Below, piece after piece: positions 1-64,000 of a stretch of 64,000 nucleotides of DNA; positions within the stretch are counted from its first letter, which is position 1, and each line of letters starts with the position of its first letter. Both the position numbers and the translations under genes were made by a program. The DNA is taken from the NCBI GenBank assembly GCA_947650365.1, contig CANTAL010000026.1, positions 1,426,001 to 1,490,000 of the forward strand, given 5' to 3'. The notes under the pieces were generated by a model. That model ran no database searches. It was not told the origin of the DNA and was given only the letters and a program-made list of their open reading frames with translations. This DNA is from Chamaelirium japonicum. Its lineage: Eukaryota; Streptophyta; Magnoliopsida; Liliales; Melanthiaceae.

Positions 1-530
1 GAATTAATTAGAATGGATCGTACGAATGAATTAGAACGGATCCACCGAATGAGATAGAATGGATCATACGAATGAATTAGAATGGATCGTATGAATGAAT
101 TAGAATGGATCGTGCGAATGAATTAGAATGGATCATAGGAATGAATTAGAATGGATCGTGCAAATGAATTAGAATGGATACATTCATGCGAATGAATTAG
201 AATGGATCGTACGAACGAATTAGAATAGATCGTGCGAATGAATTAGAATGAGTCGTATGAATAAATTAGAATGGTTACATTCGTGCGATTGAATTAGAAT
301 TGATCGTACGAATGGATTAGAATGGATCGTACGAATGGATTAGAATGGAGCGTACGAATGAATTAGAATGGATCGTACAAATGAATTAGAAAGGTTACAT
401 TTGTAAGAATGAATTAGAATGGATCGTACGAATGAATTAGAATGGATCGTACGAATGGATTAGAATGGATCGGATCGTGCGAATGAATTAGAATGGATCG
501 TACGAATGGGTTAGAATGGATCGTACGAAT
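1..530 (+). repeat. F block
   Basis: F-oriented 23- and 28-bp monomers. It includes a GGATCC variant at 38 and a six-base slip (GGATCGGATCG) at 467. It ends where GGATCGTACG runs directly into AATGTAACC of the opposite orientation. Confidence 0.9.
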
Positions 531-806
531 GTAACCATTCTAATTCATTCGTACGATCCATTCTAATTCATTCGTATGATCCATTCTAATTCATTCCTAC
601 GATCTATTCTAATTCATTCGTACGATCCATTCTAATTCATTCGTATGATCCATTCTAACTCATTCGGTGGATCCATTCTAATTCATTCGCACGATCCATT
701 CTAATTCATTCGCACGAATGTATCCATTCTAATTCATTCGTACGATCCATTCTAATTCGTTTGCACGATCCATTCTAATTCATTCTCACGATCCATTCTA
801 ATTCAT
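531..806 (-). repeat. R block
   Basis: Twelve or so R monomers with the CGGTGGATCC variant at 669. It ends at ATTCATAAGAATGG, one of the few strand switches that lie outside the CGTACG core. Confidence 0.9.
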
Positions 807-1080
807 AAGAATGGATCGTACGAATGAATTAGAATGGATCGTGCGAATGAATTAGATTGAATCGTACGAATATACTAGAATGGATACATTCGTGTGAATG
901 AATTAGAATGGATCGTACGAATGAATTAGAATGGATCGTGCGAATGAATTAGAATGGATACATTCGTGCGAATGAATTAGAATGGATCGTACGAATGAAT
1001 TAGAATGGATCGTGCGAATGAATTAGAATGGATACAATCTAGCGAATGAATTAGAATGGATCATAGGAATGAATTAGAAT
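807..1080 (+). repeat. F block
   Basis: Short F run in which 28-bp monomers are frequent. The switch at its end joins TTAGAAT to GATCCTTTC, so F monomer bases 11-15 abut the R form outside the core. Confidence 0.88.
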
Positions 1081-1308
1081 GATCCTTTCTAATTTATTCG
1101 TACGATCCATTCTAATTCATTCGTACGATCCATTCTAATTCATTCGCTTGAATGTATCCATTCTAATTCATTCGCACGATCCATACTAATTCATTCGTAC
1201 GATCCATTCTAATTCATTCGCACGAATGTATCCATTCTAATGCATTCATACGTTTCATTCTAATTCATTCGCACGATCCATTCTAATTCATTCGTACGAT
1301 CCATTCCT
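1081..1308 (-). repeat. R block
   Basis: Short R run. It ends CCATTCCTATGAATTAG, a rare joint that is matched at 9744 in the second higher-order copy (CCATTCTTATGAATTAG). Confidence 0.88.
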
Positions 1309-4000
1309 ATGAATTAGAATGGATCTTACGAATGGATTAGAATGGATCGTACGAATGAATTAGAATGGATCGTACGAATGAATTATAATGGATCGTACGA
1401 ATGAATTAGAATGGATACATTCGAGCGAATGAATTAGAATAGATCGTACGAATGAATTAGAATGGATCATAGGAATGAATTAGAATGGATCGTGCAAATG
1501 AATTAGAATGGTTACATTCGTGCGAATGAATTAGAATGGATCATAGGAATGAATTAGAATGGATCGTACGAATGAATTAGAATGGTTACATTCGTGCGAA
1601 TGAATTAGAATGGATCGTACGAATGGATTAGAATGGATCGTACGAATGGATTAGAATGGATCGTACGAATGGATTAGAATGGATCGTACAAATGAATTAG
1701 AAAGGTTACATTTGTAAGAATGAATTAGAATGGATCGTACGAATGTATTAGAATGGATCGTACGAATGAATTAGAATGGATCGTACGAATGAATTAAAAT
1801 GGATCGTAGGAATGAATTAGAATGGATCGTACAAATGAATTAGAATGGATCGTACGAATGAATTAGAATGGATCGTACGAAAGAATTAGAATGGATCGTA
1901 TGAATGAAGTAGAATGGATCGTACGAATGGATTAGAATGGATCGTACGAATGGATCATGCGAATGAATTAGAATGGATCATACGAATGCATTAGAATCGA
2001 TCGTACGAATGAATTAGAATGGATACATTCGTGCGAAAGAATTAGAATGGATTGTGCGAATGAATTAGAATGGATTGTGGGAATGAATTAGAATGGATCG
2101 TGCGAATGAATTAGAATGTAGCGTATGAATGAATAAGAATGGTTCGTACGAATGAATTAGAATGGATACATTCGAGCGAATGAATTAGAATGGATTAGAA
2201 TGGATCGTACGAATGAATTAGAATAGATCGTACGAATGAATTAGAATGGATCGTACGAATGAATTAGAATGGATCGTACGAATGAATTAGAAAGGTTCCA
2301 TTCGTGAGAATGAATTAGAATGGATCGTACAAATGAATTAGAATGGATCACGCGAATGGATTAGAATGGATCGTACGAATGGATTAGAATGGATCGAACG
2401 AATGAATTAGAATGGATCATGCGAATGAATTAGAATGGATCGTACGCATGAATTAGAATGGATCGTACGAATGAATTAGAATGGATACATTCGAGCGAAT
2501 GAATTAGAATGGATCGTACGAATGAATTAGAATGGATCATAGGAATGAATTAGAATGGATCGTGCAAATGAATTAGAATGGATACATTCGTGTGAATGAA
2601 TTAGAATGGATCGTAGGAATGAATTAGAATGGATCGTACGAATGAATTAGAATGGTTACATTCGTGCGAATGAATTAGAATGGATCGTACGAATGGATTA
2701 GAATGGATCGTACGAATGGATTAGAATGGATCGTACGAATGAATTAGAATGGATCGTACAAATGAATTAGAAAGGTTACATTTGTGAGAATGAATTAGAA
2801 TGGATCGTACAAATGAATTAGAAAGGTTACATTTGTGAGAATGAATTAGAATTGATCGTACGAATAATGGATCGTACAAATGAATTAGAATGGATCATGC
2901 AAATGAATTAGAAAGGTTACATTCGTGAGAATGAATTAGAATGGATCGTACGAATGAATTAGAATGGATCATGCGAATGAATTTGAATGGATCGTACGAA
3001 TCAATAAGAATGGATCGTAGGAATGAATTAGAATGGATCATACGAATGAATTAGAATGGATCGTGCGAATGAATTAGAATGGATACATTTGTCTGAATGA
3101 ATTAGAATGAATCATGCGAATGAATTAGAATGGATCATACGAATGAATTAGAATGGATCCACCGAATGAGTTAGAATGGATCATACGAATGAATTAGAAT
3201 GGATCGTACGAATGAATTAGAATGGATCGTACGAATGAATTAGAATGGATCATACGAATGAATTAGAATGGAGCGTACGAATGAACTAGAATGGATACAT
3301 TTGTGCGAATGAATTAGAATGGATCATATGAATGAATTAGAATGGATCGTGCGAATGAATTAGAATGGAGCGTACAAATGAACTAGAATGGATACATTCG
3401 TACAAATGAATTAGAATGGAATGGATCGTGCGAATGAATTAGAATGGATCGTGCGAATGAATTAGATAGGTTACATTCGTGAGAATGAATTAGAATGGAT
3501 CGTACGAATGAATTAGAATGGATCATGCGAATGAATTTGAATGGATCGTATGAATGAATAAGAATGGATCGTACGAATGAATTAGAATGGATACATTCGA
3601 GCGAATGAATTAGAATAGATCGTAGGAATGAATTAGAATGGATCATACGAATGAATTAGAATGGATCGTGCAAATGAATTAGAATGGATTGTTCGAATGA
3701 ATTAGAATGGATACATTCGTGCGAATGAATTAGAATGGATCATAGGAATGAATTAGAATGGATCGTACGAATGAATTAGAATGGATCGTACGAATAGATT
3801 AGAATGGATCGTACGAATGGATTAGAATGGATCGTACGAATGAATTAGAATGGATCGTACAAATGGAATAGAATGGATCGTACGAATGAATTAGAATGGA
3901 TCGTGCGAATGAATTTGAATAGATCGTACGAATGAATTAGAATGGATCATATGAACGAATTAGAATGGATCGTAAGAATGAATTAGAATGGATACATTTG
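1309..4000 (+). repeat. F block, 2.7 kb
   Basis: Continuous F array. Local oddities are a partial-monomer expansion (GGATTAGAAT) near 2176-2205, a truncated monomer CGAATAATGG at 2861, repeated AAAGGTTACATTTGTGAG monomers, a GGATCCACC variant at 3155, and a module at 3383-3646 that recurs in both orientations across the window. It ends GATACATTTGTACGATCC, a core switch. Confidence 0.92.
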
Positions 4001-5340
4001 TACGATCCATTCTAATTCATTCGTACCATTCTAGTTCATTCATACAATCCATTCTAATTCATTTGCACGATCCATTCTAATTCATTCCTATGATCCCTTC
4101 TAATTCATTCGTACGATCCATTCTAATTCATTCGCACGAATGTATCCATTCTAATTAATTCGTACGATCCATTCTAATTCATTCATATGATCCATTATTA
4201 TCAATTCGTACGATCCATTCTAATTCATTCCTACGATCCATTCTAATTCATTCGCACGAATGTATCCATTCTAATTCATTTGCACGATCCATTCTAATTC
4301 ATTCCTATGATCCATTCTAATTCATTCGTACGATCCATTCTAATTCGTTCATATGATCCATTCTAATTCATACGTACGATCCATTCTAATTCGTTCGCAC
4401 GATCCATTCTAATTCATTCGCATGATCCATTCTAATTCTTTCATATGATCCATTCTAATTCATTCGCACGAATGTATCCATTCTAGTTCATTCGTACACT
4501 CCATTCTAATTCATTCGTACGCTCCATTCTTATTCATCGCATAAATGTATCCATTCTAACTCATTCGTAATATCCATTCTAATTCATTCGCACGATCGAT
4601 TCTAATTCATTCGTATGATCCATTCTAATTCAATCGTACGATCCATTCTAATTCTTTCGTACGATCTATTCTAATTCATTCGCACGATCTATTCTAATTC
4701 ATTCGTACAATCCAGTCTAATTCATTCGTATGATCCATTCTAATTCATTCGTACGATTCATTCTAATTCATTCGTATGATCCATTCTAATTCATTCGCAC
4801 GAATGTATCCATTCTAATTCATTCGTACAATCCATTCTAATTCATTCGCACGATCCATTCTAATTCATTCGTATGATCCATTCTAATTCATTCCTACGAT
4901 CTATTCTAATTCATTCGCTCGAATGTATCCTTTCTAATTCATTTGTACGATCCATTCTAATTCATTCGTACGATCCATTCTAATTCATTTGGACGAATGT
5001 ATCCATTCTAATTCATCCGCACGATCCATTCTAATTCATTCCTACGATCCATTCTAATTCATTCGCACGAATGTATCCATTCTAATGCATTCGTACGATC
5101 CATTCTAATTCATTCGTACGATCCATTCTAATCCATTCGTACGATCCATTCTAATTCATTCTCACAAATGTAACCTTTCTAATTCATTCGTACGATCCAT
5201 TCTAATTCATTCGTACGATTCATTCTAATCCATTCGTACGATCCATTCTAATCCATTCGCACGAATGTAACCATTCTAATTCATTCGTACGATCCATTCT
5301 AATTCAGTTCTACGATCCATTCTAATTTATTTGCACGAAT

Positions 5341-12200: not shown

Positions 12201-15200
12201 TCGTACGATCCATTCTAATTCATTCGTACCATTCTAATTCATTCATACAATCCATTCTAATTCATTTGCACGATCCATTCTAATTCATTCCTATGATCCA
12301 TTCTAATTCATTCGTACGATCCATTCTAATTCATTCGCACGAATGTATCCATTCTAATTCATTCGTACGATCCATTCTTCTCCATTCGTACGATCCATTC
12401 TAATTCATTCCTACGGTCCATTCTAATTTATTCGCACGAATGTATGCATTCTAATTCATTTGCACGATCCATTCTAATTCATTCCTATGATCCATTGTAA
12501 TTCATTCGTACGATCCATTCTAATTCATTCGCTCGAATGTATCCATTCTAATTCATTCGTACGATCCATTCTAATTCGTTCATATGATCCATTCTAATTC
12601 GTTCGTACGATCCATTCTAATTCATTCGAACGAATGTATCCATTCTAATTCATTCCTATGATCCATTGTAATTCATTCGTACGATCCATTCTAATTCATT
12701 CGCTCGAATGTATCCATTCTAATTCATTCGTACGATCCATTCTAATTCGTTCATATGATCCATTCTAATTCTTTCATATGATCCATTCTAATTCATTCGC
12801 ACGAATGTATCCATTCTAGTTCATTCGTACGCTCCATTCTAATTCATTCTTGCGCTCCATTCTTATTCATCGCACAAATGTATCCATTCTAATTCATTCG
12901 TACGATCCATTCTAATTCATTCGTATGATCGATTGTAATTCATTCGTATGATCCATTCTAATTCAATCGTACGATCCATTCTAATTCTTTCGTACGATCT
13001 ATTCTAATTTATTCGCACGATCTATTCTAATTCATTCGTACAATCCAGTCTAATTCATTCGTATGATCCATTCTAATTCATTCGTACGATTCATTCTAAT
13101 TCATTCGTATGATCCATTCTAATTCATTCGCACAAATGTATCCATTCTAATTCATTTGTACAATCCATTCTAATTCATTCGCACGATCCATTCTAATTCA
13201 TTCGTATGATCCATTCTAATTCATTCCTACGATCTATTCTAATTCATTCGCTCGAATGTATACTTTCTAATTCATTTGTACGATCCATTCTAATTCATTC
13301 GTACGATCCATTCTAATTCATTTGTACGAATGTATCCATTCTAATTCATTCGCACGATCCATTCTAATTCATTCCTACGATCCATTCTAATTCATTCGCA
13401 CGAATGTATCCATTCAAATTCATTCGTACGATCCATTCTAATTCATTCGTACGATCCATTCTAATCCATTCGTACGATCCATTCTAATTCATTCTTACAA
13501 ATGTAACCTTTCTAATTCATTGTACGATCCATTCTAATCCATTCGTACGATCCATTCTAATCCATTCGTACGATCCATTCTAATTCATTCGCACGAATGT
13601 AACCATTCTAATTCATTCGTACGATCCATTCTAATTCATTCCTACGATCCATTCTAATTTATTTGCACGAATATACGATCCATTCTAATTCATTCGCACA
13701 AATGTATCCATTCTAATTCATTCGTACGATCCATTCTAATTCATTTGTATGATCTATTCTAATTCATTCGCACGAATGTAACCATTCTAATTCATTCGCA
13801 CGATCCATTCTAGTTTTCATTCATACGATCTATTCTAATTCATTCACACGAATGTATCCATTCTAATTCATTCGCACAATCCAATCTAATTCAAACGTAC
13901 GATCCATTCTAATTCATTCACATGATGTATTCTAATTCATTCGTATGTATCCATTCTAATTCATCCGTACGATCCATTCTAATTTATTCACACAAATGTA
14001 TCCATGCTAATTCATTCGTATGATCCATTCTAATTCATTCGCACGAATGTATCCATTCTAATTCATTCGTACGATCCATTCTAACCCATTCGGTGGATCC
14101 ATTCTAATTCATTCATACGATCCATTCTAATTCATTCGCGCGATTCATTCGTACGATCCATTCTAATTCATTCGCACGATCCATTCTAATTCATTTGTAC
14201 GATCCATTCAAATTTATTCGCATGATCCATTCTAATTCATTCGTACAATCCATTCTAATTCATTCTCACGAATGTAACCTTTTTAATTCATTTGTATGAT
14301 CCATTCTAATTCATTCGTACGATCCATTCTAATCCATTCATACGATCCATTCTAATCCATTCGTACGATCCATTCTAATCCATTCGTATGATCCATTCTA
14401 ATTCATTCGTACAATCCATTCTAATTCATTCGTATGATTCATTCTAATTCATTCCTACGTACGATCCATTCTAATTCATTCGCACGAATGTAACCATTCT
14501 AACTCATTCGTACGATCCATTCTAATTCGATCATACGATCCATTCTAATTCATTCTCACGAATGTAACCTTTCTAATTCATTTGTATGATCCATTCTAAT
14601 TCATTCGTACGATCCATTCTAATTCATTCGCACGAATCCATTCTCATTCATTCGCACAATCCATTCTAATTCATTCGTACGATCCATTCTAATTCATTCG
14701 TATGATCCATTCTAATTCATTCGCACAAATGTATCCATTCTAATTCATTCGTACGATCCAATCTAATTCATTCGTATGATCTATTCTAATTCATTCGCAC
14801 GAATGTAACCATTCTAATTCATTCGCACGATCCATTCTAATTTTCATTCATACGATCTATTCTAATTCATTCGCACGAATGTATCCATTCTAATTCATTC
14901 GTACGATCCATTCTAATTCATTCGTACGATCCATTCTAATTCATTCTCACAAATGTAACCTTTCTAATTCATTTGTGCGATCCATTCTAATTCATTCGTA
15001 CGATCCATTCTAATCCATTTGTACGATCCATTGTAATCTTTTCGTACGATCCATTCTAATTCATTCGCACGAATGTTTCCATTCTAATTCATTCGTACGA
15101 TCCATTCTAATCCATTCGTACGATCCATTCTAATCCATTCGTACGGTCCATTCTAATTCATTCGCACAAATGTATCCATTCTAATTCATTCGTACGATCC

Positions 15201-15258
15201 ATTCTAATTCATTCGCACGATCCATTCGTACGATCCATTCTAATTCATTCGTATGATA
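12201..15258 (-). repeat. R block, 3.1 kb
   Basis: Counterpart of 4001-8470 without the internal duplication. It holds ATTTTCATTC-type monomers at 13813 and 14840 and GGATCC at 14095. About 400 bp near 14.54-14.95 kb recurs almost unchanged near 36.64-37.05 kb. It ends GTATGATACATTCGTGCG, a core switch. Confidence 0.92.
14548..14948 (-). repeat. 400-bp duplicated segment, left copy
   Basis: Matches 36645-37045 at a constant offset of 22,097, fixed by GCACGAATCC (14630 and 36727) and ATTTTCATTC (14840 and 36937), with only scattered base changes between them by eye. Confidence 0.85.
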
Positions 15259-15592
15259 CATTCGTGCGAATGAATTAGAATGGATCATACGAATGAATTA
15301 GAATGGATCGTGCGAATGAATTAGAAATGATCATACGAATGAATTAGAATGGATCGTACGAACGAATTAGAATGGATCGTATGAACGAATTAGAATGGAT
15401 CGTACGAATGAATTAGAATGGATACATTCGAGCGAATGAATTAGAATGGATCGTGCGAATGAATTAGAATGGATTGTACGAATGAATTAGAATGGTTACA
15501 TTCGTGAGAATGAATTAGAATGGATCGTACGAATGAATTAGAATGGATCATGCGAATGAATTTGAATGGATCGTACGAATGAATTAGAATGG
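15259..15592 (+). repeat. F block
   Basis: Short F run ending in the GGCC-centred perfect palindrome at 15576-15609. Confidence 0.9.
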
Positions 15593-15609
15593 CCATTCTA
15601 ATTCATTCG
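15576..15609. repeat. 34-bp perfect palindrome, GGCC centre
   Basis: An F monomer stops at GAATGG and is met head-on by CCATTC of an R monomer. The arms are CGAATGAATTAGAATGG and its exact complement, and homology continues outward with mismatches. Monomer phase is broken here, unlike at core switches. Confidence 0.93.
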
Positions 15610-16011
15610 CACGATCCATTCTAATTCATTTGTACGATCCATTTTAATTCATTCGCATGATCCATTCTAATTCATTCGTATGATACATTCGTGCGAATGA
15701 ATTACGTACGATCCATTCTAATTCATTCGTACGATCTAATTCATTCGTATGATCCATTCTAATTCATTCGAACGAATGTAACCATTGTAATTCATTCGTA
15801 CGATCCATTCTAATTCATTCGTACGATCGATTCTAATTCATTCGTACAATCCATTCTAATTTATTCGCACGATCCATTCTAATTCATTCGTATGATCCAT
15901 TCTAATTCATTCCTACGATCTATTCTAATTCATTCGCTCGAATGTATCCATTCTAATTCATTCGTACAATCCATTCTAATTCATTCGTACGATCCATTCT
16001 AATTCATTTGC
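15593..16011 (-). repeat. R block with one reversed monomer
   Basis: R monomers interrupted by a single F monomer at about 15683-15704 (GATACATTCGTGCGAATG). A truncated monomer (GTACGATCTAATTC) lies just after it. The block ends CATTTGCAAATTAG. Confidence 0.85.
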
Positions 16012-18333: not shown

Positions 18334-18457
18334 TACATTCATACGACTGAATTAGAATGGATTGTACGAATGAATTAGAATGGATCGTACGAATGAATTA
18401 GAATGGATCCTGCGAATGAATTAGAATGGATCGTACAAATGAATTAGAATGGATCGT
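18334..18457 (+). repeat. F block, about 5 monomers
   Basis: Short F run entered at GATACATTCATACGACTG (a joint reused at 58060, 60190 and, as TTCGTACGACTG, 61703) and left at GGATCGTACGATTC. Confidence 0.88.
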
Positions 18458-28939: not shown

Positions 28940-28956
28940 GTACGATCCATTCTAAT
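28923..28956. repeat. 34-bp perfect palindrome, core duplicated
   Basis: The F-to-R joint GGATCGTAC meets GTACGATCC, so the core reads CGTACGTACG. Arms pair perfectly for 17 bp each side of 28939/28940. The copy at 30579/30580 pairs for 8 bp before a mismatch. Confidence 0.9.
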
Positions 28957-47938: not shown

Positions 47939-48845
47939 ATACGATTGAATTAGAATGGATTGTACGAATGGATTAGAATGGATCGTACGAATGAATTAGA
48001 ATGGATCGTACGAGATCGTATGAATGGATTAGAATGGATCGTACGAATGGATTAGAATGGATCGTACGAATGAATTAGAATGGATCATACAAATGAATTA
48101 GAAAGGTTACATTCGTGAGAATGAATTAGAATGGATCGTACAAATGAATTAGAATGGATCATGCGAATGAATTTGAATGGATCGTACGAATGAATTAGAA
48201 TGGATCGTAGGAATGAATTAGAATGGATCGTACGAATGAATTAGAATGGTTACATTTGTGAGAATGAATTATAATGGATCGTACTAATGAATTAGAAAGT
48301 TTACATTCGTGAGAATGGATTAGAATAGATCGTACGAATGAATTAGAATGGATCATGCAAATGAATTTGAATGGATCGTACGAATGAATTAGAATGGATC
48401 GAACGAATGAATTAGAATGGATACATTCGAGCGAATGAATTAGAATAGATCGTAGGAATGAATTAGAATGGATCAAACGAATGAATTAGAATGGATCGTG
48501 CGAATGAATTAGAATGGATTGTACGAATGAATTAGAATGGATACATTCGTGCGAATGAATTAGATTGGATCGTATGAATGAATTAGAATGGATCGTGCGA
48601 ATGAATTAGAATGAATCGTACGAATGAATTAGAATGGATACATTTGTACGAATAAATTAGAATGGATTGTACGAATGAATTAAAATGGATACATTCTTGC
48701 GAATAAATTAGAATGGATCGTATATTTGTGCAAATAAATTAGAATGGATCATACGAATGAATTAGAATGGATCATGCGAATGAATTAGAATGAATCGTAG
48801 GAATGCATTAGAATGGATCGTACGAATGAATTAGAATGAATCGTA
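47939..48845 (+). repeat. F block
   Basis: F run with a GTACGAGATCGTATG truncation near 48010 and the recurring module at 48195-48476. It ends GAATGAATCGTACGATCC, a joint also found at 53374. Confidence 0.9.
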
Positions 48846-48990
48846 CGATCCATTCTAATTCATTTGTACGATCCATTCTAATTCATTCGCACGATCCATT
48901 CTAATTCATTCGTACGATCCATTCTAATTCATTCGTATGATCAATTCTAATTCATTCGTACAATCCATTCTAATTCAGTCGTATGAATAT
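48846..48990 (-). repeat. R block, about 6 monomers
   Basis: Short R run ending in CAGTCGTATGAATATATC, then F. Confidence 0.88.
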
Positions 48991-49754
48991 ATCATACGAA
49001 TGAATTAGAATGGATCATGCGAATGAATTAAAATGGATCGTACAAATGAATTGGAATGGATCGTACGAATGAATTAGAATACATCATATGAATGAATTAG
49101 AATGGATCATATGTTTGAATTAGATTGGATTGTGCGAATGAATTAGAATGGATACATTCGTGCGAATGAATTAGAATAGATCGTATGAATGAATTAGAAT
49201 GGATCGTACGAATGAATTAGAATGGATACATTTGTACGAATGAATTGGAATGGATCGTACGAATGAATTGGAATGGATAGGGCGAATGAATTAGAATGGA
49301 TTGTACGAATGAATTAGAATGGATTGTACGAATGAATTAGAATAGATCGTGCGAATGAACTAGAATGGATCGTATGAAAGAATTAGAATGGATCGTACGA
49401 ATGAAATAGAATGGATCATACGAATGAATTAGAATCGATCGTGCGAATGAATTAGAATGGGTCGTACGAATGAATTAGAATGGATACATTTGTGCGATGA
49501 ATAAGAATGGAGCGTACGAATGAATTAGAATGGAGCGTACGAATGAACTAGAATGGATACATTCGTGTGAATGAATTAGAATGGATCATATAAAAGAATT
49601 AGAATGGATCGGGCGAATGAATTAGAATGGATCGTGCGAATGAATTAGAATGGATCGTACGAACGAATTAGAATGGATCGTACGAACGAATTAGAATTGA
49701 TCATATGAACGAATTAGAATGGATCGTACGAATGAATTAGAATGGATACATTCG
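48991..49754 (+). repeat. F block
   Basis: Carries the TGCGATGAATAAGAATGG / GGAGCGTACG / GAACTAGAATGG module (49490-49555), an inverted match to the R modules near 4.5, 12.8, 17.7 and 35.9 kb. It ends CATTCGTACGATCC. Confidence 0.9.
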
Positions 49755-51235
49755 TACGATCCATTCTAATTCATTCGTACGATCGATTCTAATTCATTCG
49801 TACGATCCATTCAAATTCATTCGCATGATCCATTCTAATTCATTCGTACGATCCATTCTAATCCTTTCTTATGATCCATTCTAATTCATTCGTACGATCC
49901 ATTCTAATCCATTCGTACGATCCATTCTAATTCATTCCTATGATCCATTCTAATTCATTCGTATGATCCATTCTAATTCATTCATACGATCCATTTTAAT
50001 TCATTCGTACGATCCATTCTAATCCATTCGTACGATCCATTCTAATTCGTTCATACGATCCATTCTAATGCATTCGTACGATTCATTCTAATTCATTCGC
50101 ACGATCCTTTCTAATTCATTCGTACGATTCATTCTAATTCGTTCGTACGATCCATTCTAATTCATTCGTATGATCCATTCTAATTCATTCCTACGATCTA
50201 TTCTAATTCATTCGCTCGAATGTATCCATTCTAATTCATTCGTTCGATCCATTCTAATTCATTTGTACGATCCATTCTAATTCATTCGCACGAATGTAAC
50301 CATTCTAATTCGTTCATACGATCCATTCTAATTCATTTGTATGATACATTCTAATTCATTCGTATGATCTATTCTAATTCATTCGCACGATCCATTCTAA
50401 TTCATTCGTATGATCCATTCTAATTCATTCCTACGATCTATTCTAATTCATTCGCTCGAATATATCCATTCTAATTCATTCGTTCGATCCATTCTAATTC
50501 ATTCGTACGATCCATTCAAATTCATTCGCATGATCCATTCTAATTCATTCGTACGATCCATTCTAATTCATTCTCACGAATGTAACCTTTCTAATTCATT
50601 TGTATGATCCATTCTAATTCATTCGTACGATCCATTCTAATCCATTCGTACGATCCATTCTAATCCACTCGTACGATTCATTCTAGTTCGTTCGTACGAT
50701 CCATTCTAATTCATTCGTATAATCCATTCTAATTTATTCATATGATCAATTCTAATTCATTCGCACGATCCATTCTAATTCATTCGTACGATCCATTCTA
50801 ATTCATTCGCACGAATGTAACCATTCTAATTCATTCGTACGATCCATTCTAATTCATTCCTACGATCCATTCTAATTCATTCGCACGAATGTATCCATTC
50901 TAATTCATTCGTACGATCCATTCTAATTCATTCGTACGATCTATTCTAATTAATTCTCACAAATGTAACCTTTCTAATTCATTTGTACGATCCATTCTAA
51001 TTCATTCGCACGATCCATTCTAATTCATTCGTACGATCCATTCTAATTCCTTCGCACGATCCATTCTAATTTATTCGTACAATCCGTTCTAATTCATTCG
51101 CACAATGCATTCTTATTCATCGCACAAATGTATCCATTCTAATTCATTCGTACGATCCATTCTAATTCATTCGCACGATCGATTCTAATTCATGTATGAT
51201 CCATTCTAATTCATTCTTACGATCCATTCTAATTT
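49755..51235 (-). repeat. R block, 1.5 kb
   Basis: Holds two close versions of the recurring module (about 50150-50300 and 50410-50607). Short truncated monomers occur near 51195. It ends CTAATTTGCGAATG. Confidence 0.9.
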
Positions 51236-51774
51236 GCGAATGAATTAGAATGGATCGTACGAATGAATTAGAATGGATTGTACGAATGAATTAGAATGGA
51301 TACATTCGAGCGAGTGAATTAGAATAGATCGTAGGAATGAATTAGAATGGATCATACGAATGAATTAGAATGGATCGTGCGAATGAATTAGAATGGATTG
51401 TACGAATGAATTAGAATGGATACATTCGAGCGAATGAATTAAAATAGATCGTAGGAATGAATTAGAATGGATCATACGAATGAATTAGAATGGATCGTGC
51501 GAATAAATTAGAATGGATCGTACGAATGAATTAGAATGGATCGTACGAATGAATTAGAATGGATCGTACGAATGAATTACAATGGTTACATTCATTCGAA
51601 TGAATTAGAATGGATCATACGAATGAATTAGATCGTACAAATGAATTAAAATGGATCGTACGTAATTCATTCGCACGAATGTATCATACGAATGAATTAG
51701 AATGGATCATGCGAATGAATTAAAATGGATCATACAAATGAATTAGAATGGATCGTGCGAATGAATTAGAATGG
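51236..51774 (+). repeat. F block with one reversed monomer
   Basis: F run with a single R monomer at about 51662-51683 (TAATTCATTCGCACG). It ends at the second GGCC-centred palindrome. Confidence 0.87.
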
Positions 51775-51791
51775 CCATTCTAATTCATTCG
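51758..51791. repeat. 34-bp perfect palindrome, GGCC centre (second)
   Basis: Same GAATGG/CCATTC head-on joint as at 15592, but the flanking monomer variants differ on both sides, which suggests a separate event. Confidence 0.93.
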
Positions 51792-52112
51792 TACGATCCA
51801 TTCAAATTCATTCACATAATCCATTCTAATTCATTCATACGATCCATTCTAATTCATTCTCACGAATGTAACCATTCTAATTCATTCGTACAATCCATTC
51901 TAATTCATTCGCACGATCCATTCTAATTCATTCGCTCGAATGTATCCATTCTAATTCATTCGTACGATCCATTCTAATTCGTTCATACGATCCATTCTAA
52001 TTCGTTCTTACGATCCATTCTAATTCATTCGTATGATCCTTTCTAATTCATTCGCAAGATCCATTCTAATTCATTCGTATGATCCATTCTAATTCATTCG
52101 CACGAATGTATC
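51775..52112 (-). repeat. R block
   Basis: Short R run from the 51774 palindrome to the core switch GAATGTATCATACGAATG, the same joint as at 51683. Confidence 0.89.
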
Positions 52113-53374
52113 ATACGAATGAATTAGAATGGATCGTACGAATGGATCGTGCGAATGAATTAGAATGGATCGTACGAATGAATTAGAATGGATACATTTG
52201 TGCGAATGAATTAGAATGGTTCGTACGAATGGATTAGAATGGATCGTACGAATGAATTAGAATGGATCGTATGAATGAATTAGAATGGTAACATTCGTGC
52301 GAATGAATTAGAATGGATCGTACGAATGGATTAGAATGGATCGTACGAATGGATTAGAATGGATCGTACGAATGAATTAGAATGGATCGCACAAATTAAT
52401 TAGGAAGGTTACATTTGTGAGAATGAATTAGAATGGATCGTACAAATGAATTAGAACGGATCGTACGAATGAATTAGAATGGATACATTTGTGCGAATGA
52501 ATTAGAATGGATCGTACGAATGAATTAGAATGGATCATACGAACGAATTAGAATGGAACATATGAACGAATTAGAATGGATCGTACGAATGAATTAGAAT
52601 GGATACATTCGAGCGAATGAATTAGAATGGATCGTACGAATGAATTAGAATGGATCATAGGAATGAATTAGAATGGATCGTGCAAATGAATTAGAATGGA
52701 TACATTCGTGCGAATGAATTAGAATGGATCGTACGAATGAATTAGATTGGATCGTGCGAATGAATTAGAATAGATCGTATAAATAAATTAGAATGGATCG
52801 TACGAATGAATTAGAATGGATCGTACGAACGAATTAGAATGGATTGTATGAACGAATTAGAATGGATCGTACGAATGAATTAGAATGGATACATTCGAGC
52901 GAATGAATTAGAATAGATCGTAGGAATGAATTAGAATGGATCATACGAATGAATTAGAATGGATCATAGGAATGAATTAGAATGGATCGTGCGAATGAAT
53001 TAGAATGGTTACATTCGTGCGAATGAATTAGAATGGATCGTACGAATGGATTAGAATGGTTCGTACGAATGAATTAGAATGGATCGTACAAATGAATTAG
53101 AAAGGTTACATTTGTGAAAATGAATTAGAATGGATCGTACGAATGGATTAGAATGGATCGTACGAATGGATTAGAATGGATCATACGAATGAATTAGAAT
53201 GGATCATACGAATGAATTAGAATGGATCGTACGAATGAGTTAGAATGGATCATACGAATGAATTAGAATAGATCGTACGAATGAATTAGAATGGATACAT
53301 TCGAGCGAATGAATTAGAATAGATCGTAGGAATGCATTAGAATGGATCGTACGAATGAATTAGAATGAATCGTA
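52113..53374 (+). repeat. F block, 1.3 kb
   Basis: F run that ends with GAATGAATCGTACGATCC, the same joint as at 48845. Confidence 0.9.
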
Positions 53375-54948
53375 CGATCCATTCTAATTCATTTGTCCGA
53401 TCCATTCTAATTCATTCGCACGAATGTATCCATTCTAATTCATTCGTACAATCCATTCTAATTCATTCGCACGATCCATTATAATTCATTCGTATGATCC
53501 ATTCTAATTCATTCCTACGATCTATTCTAATTCATTCGCTCGAATCTATCCATTCTAATCCATTCGTATGATCCATTCTAATTCATTCGTACGATCCATT
53601 CTAATTCATTCGAATGATACATTCTAATTCACTCGTATGATCCATTCTAATTCATTCGTACGGTCCATTCTAATTCATTCGCTCGAATGTATCCATTCTA
53701 ATTCATTCGTACGATTCATTCTAATTCATTCGTACGATCCATTCTAATTTTCATTCGTACGATCTATTCTAATTCATTCGCACGATCTATTCTAATTCAT
53801 TCGCACGAATGTATCCATTCTAATTCATTTGCACGATCCATTCTAATTCATTCCTATGATCCATTCTAATTCATTCGTACGATCCATTCTAATTCATTCG
53901 TTCGATCCATTCAAATTCATTTGTACGATGCAATCTAATTCATTCGCACAAATGTATCTATTCTAATTCATTCGTACAATGCGTTCTAATCCATTCGTAC
54001 GATCCATTCTAATCCATTCGTAAGATCCATTCTAATTCATTCGTATGATCCATTCTAATTCATTCGTACGATCCATTCTAATTCATTTGCATGAATGTAT
54101 CCATTCTAATTTATTCATACGATCCATTCAAATTCATTCGCACAATCCATTCTAACTCATTCGCACAAATGTATCCATTCTAATTCATTCGTACGATCCA
54201 TTCTAATTCATTCGCACGATCCATTCTAATTCATTCGTACGATCCATTCTAATTCATTCGTACGATCCATTCTAATTCATTCGTACGATCCATTCTAATT
54301 CATTCCAACGATCTATTCTAATTCATTCGCACGATCCATTCTAATTTATTCGTACGATCCATTCTAATTCATTCATACGATCTATTCTAATTCATTCGCA
54401 CAAATGTAACCATTCTAATTCATTCGTACGATTCATTCTAATTCATTCGTATGAGCTATTCTAATTCATTCGTACGATCCATTCTAATTCATTCGTACGA
54501 TCCATTGTAATTCATTCATACAATCCATTCAGATTCATTCGCACAAATGTATCCATTCAAATTCATTCGTACGATCCATTCTAATTAATTCGCACGATCC
54601 ATTCTAATTCAGTCGTATGAATGTATCCATTTTAATTCATTCGTACGATCCATTCTAATTCATTCGTACGATCTAATTCATTCGTACGATCCATTCTAAT
54701 CCATTTGTACGATCCATTCTAATTCGTTCATATGATCCATTCTAATTCATTCGTATGATCCATTCTAATTCATTCGTATGATCAATTCTAATTCATTCGC
54801 ACGATCCATTCTAATTCATTCGTACGATCCATTCTAATTCATTCGCACGAATGTAACCATTCTAATTCATTCATACGATCCATTCTAATTCATTCCTACA
54901 ATCCATTCTAATTCATTCGCACGAATGTATCCAATCTAATTCATTCGT
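53375..54948 (-). repeat. R block, 1.6 kb
   Basis: Contains an ATTTTCATTC monomer at 53747, the CGATGCAATC / ACAATGCGTTC pair (53925-53985) and a third copy of the CATTCAGATTC / CAGTCGTATG stretch (54497-54660) known from the 29-kb blocks. It ends in a 28-bp perfect palindrome. Confidence 0.9.
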
Positions 54949-54962
54949 ACGAATGAATTAGA
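54935..54962. repeat. 28-bp perfect palindrome at an R-to-F core switch
   Basis: TCTAATTCATTCGT meets ACGAATGAATTAGA, centred on 54948/54949. After one mismatch, three more bases pair on each side. Confidence 0.92.
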
Positions 54963-56150: not shown

Positions 56151-58321
56151 TCCATTCTAATTTATTCGTACGATCCATTCTAATTCATTCGTACGATCTA
56201 TTCTAATTCATTCGCATGATCCAATCTAATTCATTCGTATGATCCATTCTAACTCATTCGGTGGATCCATTCTAATTCATTCGCACGATCCATTCTAATT
56301 TATTCGTACGATCCATTCTAATTCATTCGTACGATCTATTCTAATTCATTCGCATGATCCATTCTAATATATTCGTACCATCCATTCTAATTCATTCGTA
56401 CAATCCATTCTAATTCATTTGCATGAATGTATCCATTCTAATTTATTCGTACGAATGAATTAGAATGAATTAGAATGGATCGTACGAATGGATTAGAATG
56501 TACCGTACGAATGGATTAGAATGCATCGTACGAATGGATTAGAATGGATCGTACGAATGAATTAGAAAGGATCATACAAATGAATTAGAAAGTATCGTAT
56601 GAATGGATTAGAATGGATCGTACGAATGGATTAGAATGGATCGTACGAATGAATTAGAATGGGTCGTACAAATGAATTAGAAAGGTTACATTTGTGAGAA
56701 TGAATTAGAATGGATCGTACGATGGATTAGAATGCATTGTACGAATGAATTAAAATGGATACATTTGTACGAATGAATTACAATGGATCGTACGAATGAA
56801 TTAGAATGGATCGTACGAATGAATTAGAATAGATCATACGAATGAATTACAATGGATACATTCGAGCGAATGAATTAGAATAGATCGTAGGAATGAATTA
56901 GAATGGATCATATGAATGAATTAGAATGGATCATGCGAATAAATTAGAATGGATCGTACGAATGAATTAGAATGGATCGTACGAATGAATTAGAATGGAT
57001 CGTATAAACGAATTAGAATGGCTCATACGAACGAATTAGAATGGATCGTATGAACGAATTAGAATGGATCGTACAAATGAATTAGAATGGATACATTCGA
57101 GCGAATGAATTAGAATGGATCGTACGAATGAATTAGAATGGATCATAGGAATGAATTAGAATGGATCATGCAAATGAATTAGAATGGATACATTCGTGCG
57201 AATGAATTAGAATGGATCGTACGAATGATTTAGAATGGATCGTGCGAACGAATTAGAATGGATCGTACGAATGAATTAGAATGGATACATACAAATGAAT
57301 TAGAAAGGTTACATTCGTGTGAATGAATTAGAATGGATCGTACGAATGAATTAGAATGGATCGTACGAATGAATTAGAATGGACACATTCGAGCGAATGA
57401 ATTAGAATGGATCATACGAATGAATTTGAATGGATCATAGGAATGAATTAGAATGGATACATTCGTGCGAATGAATTAGAATGGATCGTACGAATGAATT
57501 AGACTGCATCGTACGAATAAATTAGAATGGATACATTCATACGAATGCATTTGAATGGATCGTACGAATTAATTAGAATGGATCATACGAATGAATTAGA
57601 ATGGATCATACGAATGAATTAGAATGGATCGTGCGAACGAATTAGAATGGATCGTATGAACGAATTAGAATGGATCGTACGAATGAATTAGAATGGATAC
57701 ATTCGAGCGAATGAATTAGAATGGATCGTACGATGCAATCTAATTCATTCGCACGATCCATTCTAATTCATTCGTACGATCCATTCTAATTCATTCGTAT
57801 GATCCATTCTAATTTATTCATTCAAATATATCCATTCTAATTCATTCGTACGATCCATTCTAATTCATTCGCACGATCCATTCTAATTCATTCGCACGAA
57901 TGTAACCTTTCTAATTCATTCATACGATCCATTCTAATTCATTCACACGATCGATTCTAATTCTTTCACATGTTGTATTCTAATTCATTCGTACGATCAA
58001 TTCCAATTCATTTGTACGATCCATTTTAATTCATTCGCATGATCCATTCTAATTCATTCGTATGATACATTCATACGACTGAATTAGAATGGATTGTACG
58101 AATGAATTAGAATTGATCATACGAATGAATTAGAATGGATCATACGAATGAATTAGAATGGATCCATACGAACGAATTAGAATTAGAATGGTTACATTCG
58201 TGCGAATGAATTATAATGGATCGTACAAATGGATTAGAATGGATCGTACGAATGGATTAGAACGCATTGTACGAATGAGTTAGAATAGATACATTTGTGC
58301 GAATGAATTAGATTGCATCGC
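56151..58321. repeat. 2.15-kb higher-order repeat, copy A
   Basis: Composed of R 56151-56451, F 56452-57731, R 57732-58064 and F 58065-58321. Marks shared with copy B are AACTCATTCG (56251 and 58405), ATTTATTCGTACG (56441 and 58618), GATGCAATC (57732 and 59863) and GCATCGCGTACG at the end (58315 and 60446). Confidence 0.92.
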
Positions 58322-60449
58322 GTACGATCCATTCTAATTCATTCGTACGATCTATTCTAATTCATTCGCATGATCCAATCTAATTCATTCGTATGATTCA
58401 TTCTAACTCATTCGGTGGATCCATTCTAATTCATTCGTACGATCCATTCTAATTCATTCGCACGATCCATTCTAATTTATTCGTACGATCCATTCTAATT
58501 CATTCGTACGATCTATTCTAATTCATTCGCATGATCCATTCTAATATATTCGTACGATCCATTCTAATTCATTCGTACAATCCATTCTAATTCATTTGCA
58601 TGAATGTATCCATTCTAATTTATTCGTACGAATGAATTAGAATTAATTAGAATTGATCGTACGAATGGATTAGAATGTATCGTACGAATGGATTAGAATG
58701 CATCGTACGAATGGATTAGAATGGATCGTACGAATGAATTAGAATGGATCATACAAATGAATTAGAAAGGATCGTACGAATGGATTAGAATGGATCGTAC
58801 GAATGGATTAGAATGGATCGTACGAATGGATTAGAATGGATCGTACAAATGAATTAGAAAGGTTACATTTGTGAGAATGAATTAGAATGGATCGTACGAT
58901 GGATTAGAGTGCATTGTACGAATGAATTAAAATGGATACATTTGTACGAATGAATTAGAATGGATCGTACGAATGAATTAGAATGGATCGTACGAAAGAA
59001 TTAGAATGGATCATACGAATGAATTACAATGGATACATTCGAGCGAATGAATTAGAATAAATCGTAGGAATGAATTAGAATGGATCATACGAATGAATTA
59101 GAATGGATCGTGCGAATGAATTAGAATGGATCGTACGAATGAATTAGAATGGATCGTATGAACGAATTAGAATGGCTCGTATGAACGAATTAGAATGGAT
59201 CGTATGAACGAATTAGAATAGATCGTACAAATGAATTAGAATGGATACATTCGAGCGAATGAATTAGAATGGATCGTACGAATGAATTAGAATGGATCAT
59301 AGGAATGAATTAGAATGGATCGTGCAAATGAATTAGAATGGATACATTCGTGCGAATGAATTAAAATGGATCGTACGAATGAATTAGAATGGATCGTGCG
59401 AATGAATTAGAATGGATCGTACGAATGAATTAGAATGGATACATACAAATAAATTAGAAAGGTTACATTCGTGTGAATGAATTAGAATGGATCGTACGAA
59501 TGAATTAGAATGGACACATTCGAGCGAATGAATTAGAATGGATCATACGAATGAATTAGAATGGATCATAGGAATGAATTAGAATGGATACATTCGTGCG
59601 AATGAATTAGAATGGATCGTACGAATGAATTAGACTGCATCGTACGAATAAATTAGAATGGATACATTCATACGAATGCATTAGAATGGATCGTACGAAT
59701 TAATTAGAATGGATCATACGAATGAATTAGAATGGATCATACGAATGAATTAGAATGGATCGTGCGAACGAATTAGAATGGATCGTATGAACGAATTAGA
59801 ATGGATCGTACGAATGAATTAGAATGGATACATTCGAGCGAATGAATTAGAATGGATCGTACGATGCAATCTAATTCATTCGCACGATCCATTCTAATTC
59901 ATTCGTACGATCCATTCTAATTCATTCGTATGATCCATTCTAATTTATTCGTTCAAATATATCCATTCTATTTCATTCGTACGATCCATTCTAATTCATT
60001 CGCACGATCCATTCTAATTCATTCGCACGAATGTAACCTTTCTAATTCATTCGTACGATACATTCTAATTCATTCACACGATCGATTCTAATTCTTTCAC
60101 ATGATGTATTCTAATTCATTCGTACGATCAATTCCAATTCATTTCTACGATCCATTTTAATTCATTCGCATGATCCATTCTAATTCATTCGTATGATACA
60201 TTCATACGACTGAATTAGAATGGATTGTACGAATGAATTAGAATTGATCATACGAATGAATTAGAATGGATCATACGAATGAATTAGAATGGATCCATAC
60301 GAACGAATTAGAATTAGAATGGTTACATTCGTGCGAATGAATTATAATGGATCGTACAAATGGATTAGAATGGATCGTACGAATGGATTAGAACGCATTG
60401 TACGAATGAATTAGAATAGATACATTTGTGCGAATGAATTAGATTGCAT
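58322..60449. repeat. 2.13-kb higher-order repeat, copy B
   Basis: R 58322-58626, F 58627-59862, R 59863-60195, F 60196-60449. It begins with one more R monomer than copy A (offset 2154 rises to 2177), then loses about two F monomers, so the offset returns to 2131. Confidence 0.92.
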
Positions 60450-61957
60450 CGCGTACGATCCATTCTAATTCATTCGTATGATCTATTCTAATTCATTCGC
60501 ATGATCCAATCTATTTCATTCGTATGATCCATTCTAACTCATTCGATGGATCTATTCTAATTCATTCGTACGATCCATTCTAATTTATTTGCACGATCCA
60601 TTCTAATTTATTCGTATGATCCATTCGAATTCATTCGTACGATCTATTCTAATTCATTCGCATGATTCATTCTAATATATTCGTACGATCCATTCTAATT
60701 CATTCGTACAATCCATTCTAATTCATTTGCATGAATGTATCCATTCTAATTTATTCGTACGAATGAATTAGAATGAATTAGAATGGATCGTACGAATGGA
60801 TTAGAATGTATCGTACGAATGGATTAGAATGCATCGTACGAATGGATTAGAATGGATCGTACGAATGAATTAGAATGGATCATACAAATGAATTAGAAAG
60901 GATCGTACGAATGGATTAGAATGGATCGTACGAATGGATTAGAATGGATCGTACGAATGAATTAGAATGGATCGTACAAATGAATTAGAAAGGTTACATT
61001 TGTGAGAATGAATTAGAATGGATCGTACGATGGATTAGAATGCATTGTACGAATGAATTAAAATGGATACATTTGTACGAATGAATTAGAATGGATCGTA
61101 CGAATGAATTAGAATGGATCGTACGAATGAATTAGAATGGATCATACGAATGAATTACAATGGATACATTCGAGCAAATGACTTAGAATAGATCGTAGGA
61201 ATGAATTAGAATGGATCATACGAATGAATTAGAATGGATCGTGCGAATGAATTAGAATGGATCGTACGAATGAATTAGAATGGATCGTATGAACGAATTA
61301 GAATGGCTCGTACGAACGAATTAGAATGGATCGTATGAACGAATTAGAATGGATCGTACAAATGAATTAGAATGGATACATTCGAGCGAATGAATTAGAA
61401 TAGATCGTACGAACGAATTAGAATGGATCATAGGAATGAATTAGAATGGATCGTGCAAATGAATTAGAATGGATACATTCGTGCGAATGAATTAGAATGG
61501 ATCGTACGAATGAATTAGAATGGATACATTCGTGCGAATGAATTAGAATGGATCGTACGAATGAATTAGAATGGATCTTGCGAATTAATTAGAATGGATC
61601 GTACGAATGAATTAGAATGGATACATACAAATGAATTAGAAAGGTTACATTCGTGTGATCCATTTTAATTCATTCTCATGATCCATTCTAATTCATTCGT
61701 ATGATACATTCGTACGACTGAATTAGAATGGATTGTACGAATGAATTAGAATTGATCATACGAATGAATTAGAATGGATCATACGAATGAATTAGAATGG
61801 ATCCATACGAACGAATTAGAATTAGAATGGTTACATTCGTGCGAATGAATTATAATGGATCGTACAAATGGATTAGAATGGATCGTACGAATGGATTAGA
61901 ACGCATTGAACTAATGAATTAGAATAGATACATTTGTGCGAATGAATTAGATTGCAT
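60450..61957. repeat. 2.13-kb higher-order repeat, copy C, with deletion
   Basis: R 60450-60757, F 60758-61656, R 61657-61704, F 61705-61957. After GGTTACATTCGTGTG it jumps straight to the end of the inner R block: the offset to copy B falls from 2182 to 1508, a loss of about 674 bp with breakpoints in an F and an R part. It gained one 23+28 pair near 61510-61560. Confidence 0.9.
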
Positions 61958-63727
61958 CGCGTACGATCCATTCTAACTCATTCGTACGATCCATTCTAAT
62001 TCATTCGCTCGAATGTATCCATTCTAATTCATTCGTACGATCCATTCTAATTCATTCGTATGATCCATTCTAATTCATTCTCACGAATGTAACCTTTCTA
62101 ATTCATTTGTATGTTCTAATTCATTCTCACAAATGTATCCATTCTAATTCATTCGTACGATCCATTCTAATTCATTCGCACGAATATATCCATTCTAATT
62201 CAATCGTACGATCCATTCTAATTCATTCGTACGATCCATTCTAATTCATTCGCACGATCCATTCTAATTCATTCGTACGATCCATTCTAATTCATTCGTA
62301 CGATCTATTCTAATTCATTCGTACGATCCATTCTAATTCATTCGTACGAATGTATCCATTCTAATTAATTCGTACGATCCATTCTAATTCATTCCTATGA
62401 TCCATTCTTATTCATTCGCACGATCCATTCTAATTCATTCAAACGATCCATTCAAATTCTTTCGTACGATCCATTCTAATTCATTCGTATGATCCATTCT
62501 AACTCATTCGGTGGATCCATTCTAATTCATTCGTACGATCCATTCTAACTCATTCGCACGATCCATTCTAATTCATTCGTACGATCCATTCTAATTCATT
62601 CGCACAAATGTAACCATTCTAATTCATTCATACAATCTATTCTAATTCCTTCGGATGATCCATTCTAATTCATTCGTACGATCCATTCTAATTCATGTGT
62701 ACGATCCATTCTAATTCATTCGCACGAATGTATCCATTCTAATTTATTCGTACGATCCATTGTAATTCATTTGCATGAATGTAACCATTCTAATTCATTC
62801 GTACAATCCATTCAAATTTATTCGTACAAATGTATCCATTCTAATTCATTCGTACGATCCATTCTAATTCATTCGTACGATCCATTCTAATTCATTCGTA
62901 CGATCCATTCTAATTCATTCGTATGATCCATTCTAACTCATTCGGTGGATCCATTCTAATTCATTCCTACGATCCATTCTAATTCATTCGTACGATCCAA
63001 TCTAATTCATTCGTATGATCCATTCTAATTCATTCGCACGAATGTATCCATTCTAATTCATTCGTACGATCCATTCTAATTCATTCGCACTATCCATTCT
63101 AATTCATTCGCACAATCCATTCTAATTCATTCATACGATCCATTCTAATTCATTCCTACAACCTATTCTAATTCATTCGCTCGAATGTATCCATTCTAAT
63201 TCATTCGTTCGATCCATTCTAATTCATTCGTACGATCCATTCAAATTCATTCGCATGATCCATTCTAATTCATTCATACGATCCATTCTAATTCAATCGT
63301 ATGATCCATTCTAATTCATTCGCACAAATGTATCCATTTTAATTCATTCTTACGTTCCATTCTAATTTATTCATACGATCCATTCTAATTCATTCGCACA
63401 ATCCATTCTAATTCATTCGTACGATCCATTCTAATCCATTCTAATTCATTCGCACGAATGTATCCATTCTAATTCATTCGCACAAATGTATCCATTCTAA
63501 TTCATTCGTATGATCCATTCTAATTCATTCCTACGATCTATTCTAATTCATTCGCTCGAATGTATCCATTCTAATTCATTCGCTCGATCCATTCTAATTC
63601 ATTCATACGATCCATTCAAATTCATTCGCATGATCCATTCTAATTCATTCGTACGATCCATTCTAATTCATTCTCACGAATGTAATCTTTCTAATTCATT
63701 TGTATGATCCATTCTAATTCATTCGTA
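61958..63727 (-). repeat. R block, 1.8 kb
   Basis: R array with GGATCC variants at 62513 and 62947, a truncation GTATGTTCTAATTC near 62110, and the recurring module at 63510-63707. It ends GTATGATACATTTGTGCG, a core switch. Confidence 0.9.
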
Positions 63728-63860
63728 TGATACATTTGTGCGAATGAATTAGAATGGATCATACGATTGAATTTGAATGGATCGTACGAATAAATTAGAA
63801 TGGATACATTTGTGCAATGAATAAGAATGGAGCGTACGAATGAATTAGAATGGAGCGTAC
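63728..63860 (+). repeat. F block, about 5 monomers
   Basis: Short F run with TGCAATGAATAAGAATGG and two GGAGCGTAC monomers. It ends at an untypical joint, GCGTACATCATTTGAACG. Confidence 0.87.
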
Positions 63861-64000
63861 ATCATTTGAACGATGCAATCTAATTCATTTGCATGAATGT
63901 ATCTATTCTAATTCATTCATACAATGCGTTCTAATCCATTCGTACGATCCATTCTAATCCATTTGTACGATCCATTCTAATTCATTCGCACGAATGTAAC
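63861..64000 (-). repeat. R block, cut by window end
   Basis: R monomers beginning with CGATGCAATC and including ACAATGCGTTCTAATCC, the pair also found near 35.2-35.6, 37.1 and 53.9 kb. Confidence 0.88.

What the first reader, a model, noticed from the sequence alone, without database searches (positions are those of the whole stretch)
1..64000. Short-monomer satellite with about 63 strand switches
Most tandem satellites run head-to-tail for long distances. Here a 23-bp monomer flips strand on average about once per kilobase, in blocks from one monomer to 4.6 kb. The flips are seen directly as GAATTAGAATGG turning into CCATTCTAATTC. Such dense strand mosaicism points to repeated inversion or strand-switching repair or replication within the array, which may be an undescribed mode of satellite evolution.
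Basis: partly seen in the sequence, partly recalled or inferred. Interest (0 to 1): 0.78.

Follow-up and report, generated by a model that had tools for sequence, protein, structure and literature searches.

The report
Known strand-flipping centromere repeat of Chionographis
The window is a piece of the known centromere satellite of the plant Chionographis japonica, whose tiny repeat units really do change strand about once per thousand bases; this was already published, but the flips favour an 8-letter palindrome inside the repeat and many of them are copied rather than made anew.

Summary
A two-strand model finds 63 switches in the window, or 65 when the 28-bp variant is modelled too; 3 simulated one-strand arrays gave none. 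Twenty loci hold 254 switches in 248.8 kb of satellite (1.02 per kb; 1 to 21 per 10-kb sample).

The source is the Chionographis japonica assembly: its 12 largest contigs sum to 1090.67 Mb and its N50 is 81.11 Mb, against 1090.73 and 81.11 Mb in print. The repeat is Chio1/Chio2, the holocentromere satellite. Its mixed forward and reverse orientation is already published.

What I add: switches are not placed at random. 76 of 254 are fold-backs at the 8-bp dyad TCGTACGA, against 1,282 of 40,000 random joins. Exact dyad fold-backs number 5,655 and 4,823 genome-wide, against 58 and 0 at two non-dyad axes. Many switches are copies: 11 in each arm of a roughly 11-kb inverted duplication match in order and class, and one junction type occurs 108 times. 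Best reading: palindrome-assisted strand switching, then amplification. Raw reads were not available.

The parts
1..64000 (.). Chio1/Chio2 satellite array, both orientations interleaved
   Evidence: TRF period 23; HMM 63 or 65 switches; 52% of bases on + strand
162..189 (+). example of the 28-bp variant (Chio2 type): 5 extra bases give a short piece of the opposite strand, here CATTCATGCGAATG across the unit end (consensus CATTCGTGCGAATG)
   Evidence: read directly; Chio2-type states cover 21.8% of the window
23240..23253 (.). example of a head-to-head (+ to -) switch at the 8-bp dyad (GGATCATACGATCC); 12 window junctions fall in this core class, 8 of them by the strict 14-mer rule
54942..54955 (.). 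example of a tail-to-tail (- to +) switch at TCGTACGA (CATTCGTACGAATG); 10 window junctions fall in this core class, 8 of them by the strict rule
14971..25682 (+). left arm of a large inverted duplication (about 97-98% identical to the right arm in most 500-column bins)
   Evidence: 11 junctions
41643..52396 (-). right arm of the same inverted duplication, 11 junctions in mirrored order and of the same core classes; about 16 kb lie between the arms
56192..61387 (.). tandem duplication of an approx. 2.1-kb mosaic unit (56192-59256 vs 58346-61387, 98.2% identical) carrying the same switches
1..4075 (.). segment duplicated at about 8466-12278 (96.9% identical), with corresponding switches in both copies
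794..818 (+). junction type CATTCTAATTCATAAGAATGGATCG, 108 exact copies genome-wide; in the window also at 9237 (+) and 9740 (-), that pair 503 bp apart
28940..29296 (-). 357-bp reverse block that matches, inverted, a segment just upstream (28392-28745, 96% identical); a second copy of the block lies at 30580-30936

Best explanation
This is the CENH3-associated holocentromere satellite Chio1/Chio2 of Chionographis japonica. Strand switches form when a broken or stalled array end is rejoined, or re-primed, on the opposite strand at a short self-complementary motif, chiefly the 8-bp dyad TCGTACGA of the 23-bp consensus unit. The palindrome lets a forward unit and a reverse unit pair in register, so the join costs no sequence. 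The result is a head-to-head or tail-to-tail junction whose two arms are unrelated beyond the general level of the array. Junctions are then multiplied with their flanks by tandem and inverted segmental duplication and spread among centromere units. Shown here: the mosaic, the dyad preference, the asymmetric arms, and the copying of junctions. Inferred: the molecular step (microhomology-mediated template switch or end joining), its timing, and that breaks at the dyad start it. CENH3 binding is from the literature.
For: Assembly totals match the published C. japonica genome, and the units differ as printed, by 5 bp plus one substitution. Microhomology at junctions: mean 2.68 bp in 254 junctions against 0.74 in 600 random joins; 7 bp or more in 49 of 254 against 8 of 600. 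Core classes (single linkage, so near-variants are included): 72 head-to-head and 49 tail-to-tail dyad junctions of 253. Stricter 14-mer rule: 37 of 128 and 39 of 126, against 386 of 20,000 and 896 of 20,000 random joins. At lineage level 49 and 33 of 184 by class, 54 of 184 by the strict rule. Genome-wide exact fold-backs at TCGTACGA 5,655 (head-to-head) and 4,823 (tail-to-tail), against 58 and 0 at two non-dyad axes, whose 11-bp arms are about as common or commoner in the samples (6,663 and 3,056, against 4,583 and 3,342). Dyad junctions sit in as many Chio1/Chio2 contexts as random sites do: 15 distinct, null 13-21.5; and 13, null 10-16.5, which fits recurrent origin. Amplification.
Against: About half of the 253 junctions are not in the two dyad classes, by the strict rule about 70% are not, and 92 of 254 show no microhomology by my measure. 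Seven of the 39 strict tail-to-tail matches belong to another core class whose 28-bp unit resembles the dyad join by itself. In the sampled loci exact 22-bp fold-backs are few: 6 and 3 at the dyad, and 2 at the non-dyad GG/CC axis, so the large contrast rests on the genome-wide counts. Dyad length alone does not predict use: tail-to-tail at the 4-bp GATC has 4,339 exact copies, head-to-head at the 4-bp AATT only 73. Copy counts mix origin with amplification; one head-to-head context is over-represented (12, against a null 97.5% limit of 10), so some 'lineages' share an older ancestor. The sister species Chamaelirium luteum shares TTCGTACGA yet its arrays are reported as uniformly oriented (PMC12722358), so the dyad is not sufficient. 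No unshared switch was seen between recent duplicates.
Confidence: 0.6

Rival explanations
1. A small number of ancient switch events, some at dyads by chance, were amplified to very many copies; there is no dyad-directed mechanism, only descent with shuffling by gene conversion. (The odds given for the rivals overlap one another and the best explanation; they are not meant to add to 1.)
For: One junction outside the two dyad classes has 108 exact copies; the 100 listed places lie on 8 contigs and include 19 plus/minus pairs exactly 503 bp apart. 28 junctions shared and none private between recent duplicates. 249 junctions collapse to 184 lineages at a strict threshold.
Against: Dyad junctions occur in 18 and 19 of 20 sampled loci, in 49 and 33 flank lineages, and in as many Chio1/Chio2 contexts as random sites. 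Several different dyad axes are well filled while two non-dyad axes are rare or absent.
Confidence: 0.27
2. Simple two-ended inversions: a segment between two dyads flips in place, leaving a head-to-head junction at one end and a tail-to-tail junction at the other.
For: Both dyad junction kinds are common and of similar number genome-wide, 5,655 and 4,823.
Against: Neighbouring junctions are not paired as dyad head-to-head with dyad tail-to-tail beyond chance: 51 observed, 51.4 (SD 3.9) expected. Later shuffling could hide old pairs.
Confidence: 0.2
3. Hairpin fold-back (snap-back) replication, giving long inverted duplications centred on each switch.
For: One large inverted duplication in the window with arms of about 11 kb; a 357-bp reverse block that matches a segment just upstream. 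A looser identity measure gave 28 of 225, 17 of 207 and 8 of 174 junctions above 0.93 at 60, 120 and 200 bp, without a matched tail control.
Against: With a matched background the arms of 195 testable junctions are no more alike than random arms: 0 of 195 above the 99.9% background. Short blocks have no overall excess of local inverted source copies (104 blocks, 312 controls, p = 0.11).
Confidence: 0.1
4. Assembly or read-chimera artefact.
For: Not excluded by direct inspection of reads, which I could not do.
Against: Switches at similar density in 20 loci; the same junction recurs on separate contigs and chromosome scaffolds; duplicates about 97-98% identical carry the same junctions; a read of roughly 15 kb (my figure) would hold about 15 switches. 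The published assembly is HiFi at 58.5x.
Confidence: 0.03

Closest known systems
Chio1/Chio2 satellites of Chionographis japonica (Kuo et al. 2023, PMC10264360)
   Same: 23- and 28-bp units differing by 5 bp and one substitution, 8-bp dyad, mixed forward and reverse arrays, 12 scaffolds of the same total length: this is that repeat and that assembly
   Different: Nothing in kind; the breakpoint analysis and the inherited junction cassettes are not in the passages and sections I read
Chama satellite of Chamaelirium luteum (PMC12722358)
   Same: Shares the 9-bp TTCGTACGA; centromeric, dyad-rich
   Different: 60-bp unit; arrays reported as consistently oriented, with structure kept over hundreds of kilobases
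Macro-dyad satellites TmSat1/TmSat2 of Tribolium madens (PMC13081366)
   Same: Centromere-region satellite arrays that change orientation, with recurring inversion sites
   Different: Mostly two multi-kilobase subarrays per array and inversion sites 98-99% conserved; here mostly short blocks, asymmetric arms and 47 core classes
Human beta-satellite and HSat arrays with mosaic inversion structure (PMC9186530, passages)
   Same: Strand-mosaic satellite arrays
   Different: Other sequences; switch density and breakpoints not compared here

Membership tests
Chio1/Chio2 (C. japonica holocentromere satellite) | 23-bp and 28-bp units; the shorter lacks 5 bp and differs by one substitution | tested here: met
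   GAATGAATTAGAATGGATCGTAC and GAATGAATTAGAATGGATACATTCGTGC (my reading, used as a template) differ by ACATT and A/G; published description. The published monomer letters are in a figure I could not see.
Chio1/Chio2 (C. japonica holocentromere satellite) | Contains TTCGTACGA, with the 8-bp dyad | tested here: met
   Reverse strand reads CATTCGTACGATCC; the 9-mer is given in PMC12722358
Chio1/Chio2 (C. japonica holocentromere satellite) | Lies in the C. japonica assembly (12 scaffolds, 1090.73 Mb, N50 81.11 Mb) | tested here: met
   12 largest contigs sum to 1090.67 Mb, N50 contig C8 = 81,106,678 bp, C13 = 3.9 Mb (paper)
Chio1/Chio2 (C. japonica holocentromere satellite) | About 16-17% of the genome | tested here: inconclusive
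   Rough extrapolation 293-303 Mb of 1,519 Mb, 19-20%, from exact 23-mer counts; near the printed value but above it
Chio1/Chio2 (C. japonica holocentromere satellite) | Mixed forward and reverse orientation | tested here: met
Chio1/Chio2 (C. japonica holocentromere satellite) | Bound by CENH3 | not testable with these tools
   Published ChIP-seq only
Tribolium-type macro-dyad satellite arrays | Arrays built as symmetric direct and inverted subarrays | tested here: not met
   0 of 195 junctions with arms more alike than the 99.9% background; one large inverted duplication seen in the window
Tribolium-type macro-dyad satellite arrays | A few highly conserved inversion sites | tested here: inconclusive
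   Two core classes hold 121 of 253 junctions, but there are 47 classes in all

The most novel reading that the evidence does not exclude
The 8-bp dyad TCGTACGA, suspected by others of marking or breaking these centromeres, is the recurrent strand-exchange site of the whole holocentromere satellite. Between about 30% (strict rule) and 48% (core classes) of some 300,000 switches (my extrapolation) would stem from palindrome-register joins between opposite strands, and the 28-bp Chio2 unit would itself be a fossil double switch that was then amplified.
Probability: 0.4. Interest if true: 0.6.

Novelty: already known. Interest (0 to 1): 0.35.

Why it matters
If dyad-centred switching holds up, it ties a DNA motif shared by two sister centromere types to a concrete rearrangement signature. 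It then becomes testable why arrays carrying the same motif stay uniform in Chamaelirium luteum but scramble in Chionographis japonica, where one kind of centromere unit spread along every chromosome.

Tried and rejected
Species by gene: COX1 showed a plant-type mitochondrion (my reading of the protein); the 18S family search failed and was not repeated. The species came from recalling the unit lengths, then from the paper and scaffold totals. Searching papers for the unit letters found 3 unrelated papers.

Fold-back origin: a first measure hinted at some symmetric junctions; with a matched background none of 195 stood out. Local templated inverted copies: a few clear cases (28940-29296; L028 7705-7884; L021 4288-4487) but no overall excess, 104 blocks against 312 controls, p = 0.11. 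Paired inversions: no pairing. Block lengths: near exponential, p about 0.05 both in the window and overall, so no firm statement.

Dropped rows: the 20th 10-kb sample, L031, holds no satellite and is not among the 20 loci (19 samples plus the window). Of 254 junctions, 253 were clustered by core (one too near a locus end), 249 had 300-bp flanks and 195 had both 150-bp arms inside single blocks. In one search only lineages with four whole units on each side were scored: 41 of 49 and 28 of 33. In one search only blocks of 100-600 bp were used.

Full report
What was checked. The window is one satellite with a 23-bp unit from end to end. Adding the 28-bp variant as a second template gave 65. Three simulated one-strand arrays gave none, and even the shortest blocks are favoured on their called strand by at least 10^8. 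GC skew changes sign along the window in step with long blocks.

Where it comes from. The window is C38:1426001-1490000 of a 1.519-Gb genome. A plant-type mitochondrial COX1 and the unit lengths led me to recall Chionographis japonica, and the paper confirmed it. The 12 largest contigs (C1; C10 and C12; the rest) sum to 1090.67 Mb, and the N50 contig of the whole assembly is C8, 81,106,678 bp. Kuo et al. 2023 (PMC10264360; I read the abstract, matching passages and sections 8, 14 and 29) report 12 scaffolds of 1090.73 Mb with N50 81.11 Mb. The units differ by 5 bp and one substitution, as that paper says of Chio1 and Chio2. The reverse strand holds TTCGTACGA, the 9-mer that PMC12722358 (passages and section 12) reports as shared with Chama.

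What was already known. Kuo et al. [quoted passage not shown] The 2025 paper contrasts the frequently alternating orientation of Chio arrays with the uniform Chama arrays, and suggests the 9-mer may favour hairpins and breaks. Strand-mosaic satellites are known elsewhere: human beta-satellite and HSat arrays (PMC9186530, passages) and Tribolium macro-dyads (PMC13081366, passages). Microhomology-mediated repair and inversions have been described in maize CEN10 (PMC4806543, passages). In nine literature searches I saw no listed paper that places Chio breakpoints on the dyad; supplements and most subscription papers were not available, and the other listed papers were seen as listings only.

Switches across the genome. 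Twenty 10-kb samples were fetched; 19 hold satellite and one (L031) does not. With the window that makes 20 loci, 248.8 kb of satellite and 254 switches, from 1 to 21 per 10-kb sample. The samples were chosen by hand and lean on C38 and C1. The exact 23-mer occurs 1,110,541 times forward and 1,124,000 times reverse genome-wide, which extrapolates to about 293-303 Mb of satellite.

Where in the unit they fall. Single-linkage clustering of the cores of 253 junctions gave 47 classes. The two largest are head-to-head (72) and tail-to-tail (49) joins at TCGTACGA, present in 18 and 19 of 20 loci; they include slipped and mutated variants. A stricter rule, a 14-mer fold-back core with at most one mismatch, gives 37 of 128 and 39 of 126, against 386 of 20,000 and 896 of 20,000 random forward/reverse joins; 37 and 32 of these lie in the two classes and 7 in a class built on the 28-bp unit. 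Microhomology of 7 bp or more occurs in 49 of 254 against 8 of 600. Perfect 22-bp fold-backs counted over the whole assembly: TCGTACGA 5,655 head-to-head and 4,823 tail-to-tail; GATC 2,056 and 4,339; AATT 73 and 2,333; non-dyad controls 58 and 0. The control arms are not rare in the samples, but in the samples themselves exact fold-backs are few, 6 and 3 at the dyad and 2 at the GG/CC control. So dyads are preferred, but not simply by length. The tail-to-tail GATC pattern itself contains the 8-bp dyad twice, so its class is ambiguous.

The 28-bp variant. Its five extra bases turn the unit into GGATACATTCGTGCGAATG, which contains a short piece of the opposite strand followed by a tail-to-tail dyad join. 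It looks like a fossil double switch (inference from the letters). Three more core classes, of 27, 19 and 15 junctions, have this piece in their central member.

Copies, not events. In the window 14,971-25,682 matches 41,643-52,396 inverted, at about 97-98% in most bins. Each arm holds 11 junctions, in mirrored order (position sums 67,246 to 67,366) and with the same core class in 11 of 11; 10 are confirmed by alignment and 8 of 11 pairs pass the strict flank threshold. Further direct duplications are 96.8-98.2% identical. Across all loci 24 recent duplication pairs share 28 junctions and none is private; a long private inversion would have broken the alignment, and some pairs overlap, so this is a weak test. 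One junction type has 108 exact copies; the 100 places listed lie on 8 contigs and include 19 plus/minus pairs exactly 503 bp apart. By flanks, 249 junctions form 184 lineages and the 64 scored window junctions 46.

How it forms. Hairpin fold-back predicts symmetric arms: none of 195 exceed background. Two-ended inversion predicts neighbouring head-to-head and tail-to-tail dyad junctions: 51 seen, 51.4 expected. Single switches between unrelated places at a shared palindrome fit both results, and the variety of unit contexts around dyad junctions equals that of random sites, but later shuffling could also erase pairing and symmetry. I therefore hold dyad-assisted switching followed by amplification at 0.6, and pure descent from few events as the main rival. 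The dyad cannot be sufficient, since Chama arrays carry it and are reported as uniform.

Verdict. Real, known, and now better resolved. The dyad link is a useful lead rather than a surprise.

Noticed in passing
L034 (C1:1366501-1367800), about position 513: Abrupt edge between GC-richer non-satellite DNA and the Chio array on chromosome scaffold C1, with a switch about 700 bp inside; such edges are anchors for haplotype comparison.
   Followed up: no
genome G000, many small contigs: 59 contigs carry a full-length mitochondrial COX1 match of the same score, so many small contigs are probably redundant mitochondrial pieces.
   Followed up: no
L015 (C38:900001-910000): A 9.3-kb stretch on one strand with a single switch at its edge, and a 1.8-kb direct duplication at 99.4% identity; recently amplified stretches may be strand-uniform.
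   Followed up: no
window, throughout: Apparent higher-order periods of 74, 97 and 120 bp fit a 28-bp unit recurring every 3 to 5 units.
   Followed up: partly
L019-L029, core class 4: A junction class with core CCATTATGGATACATTC has 15 copies in 8 loci, none of them in the window, hinting at regional junction repertoires.
   Followed up: no
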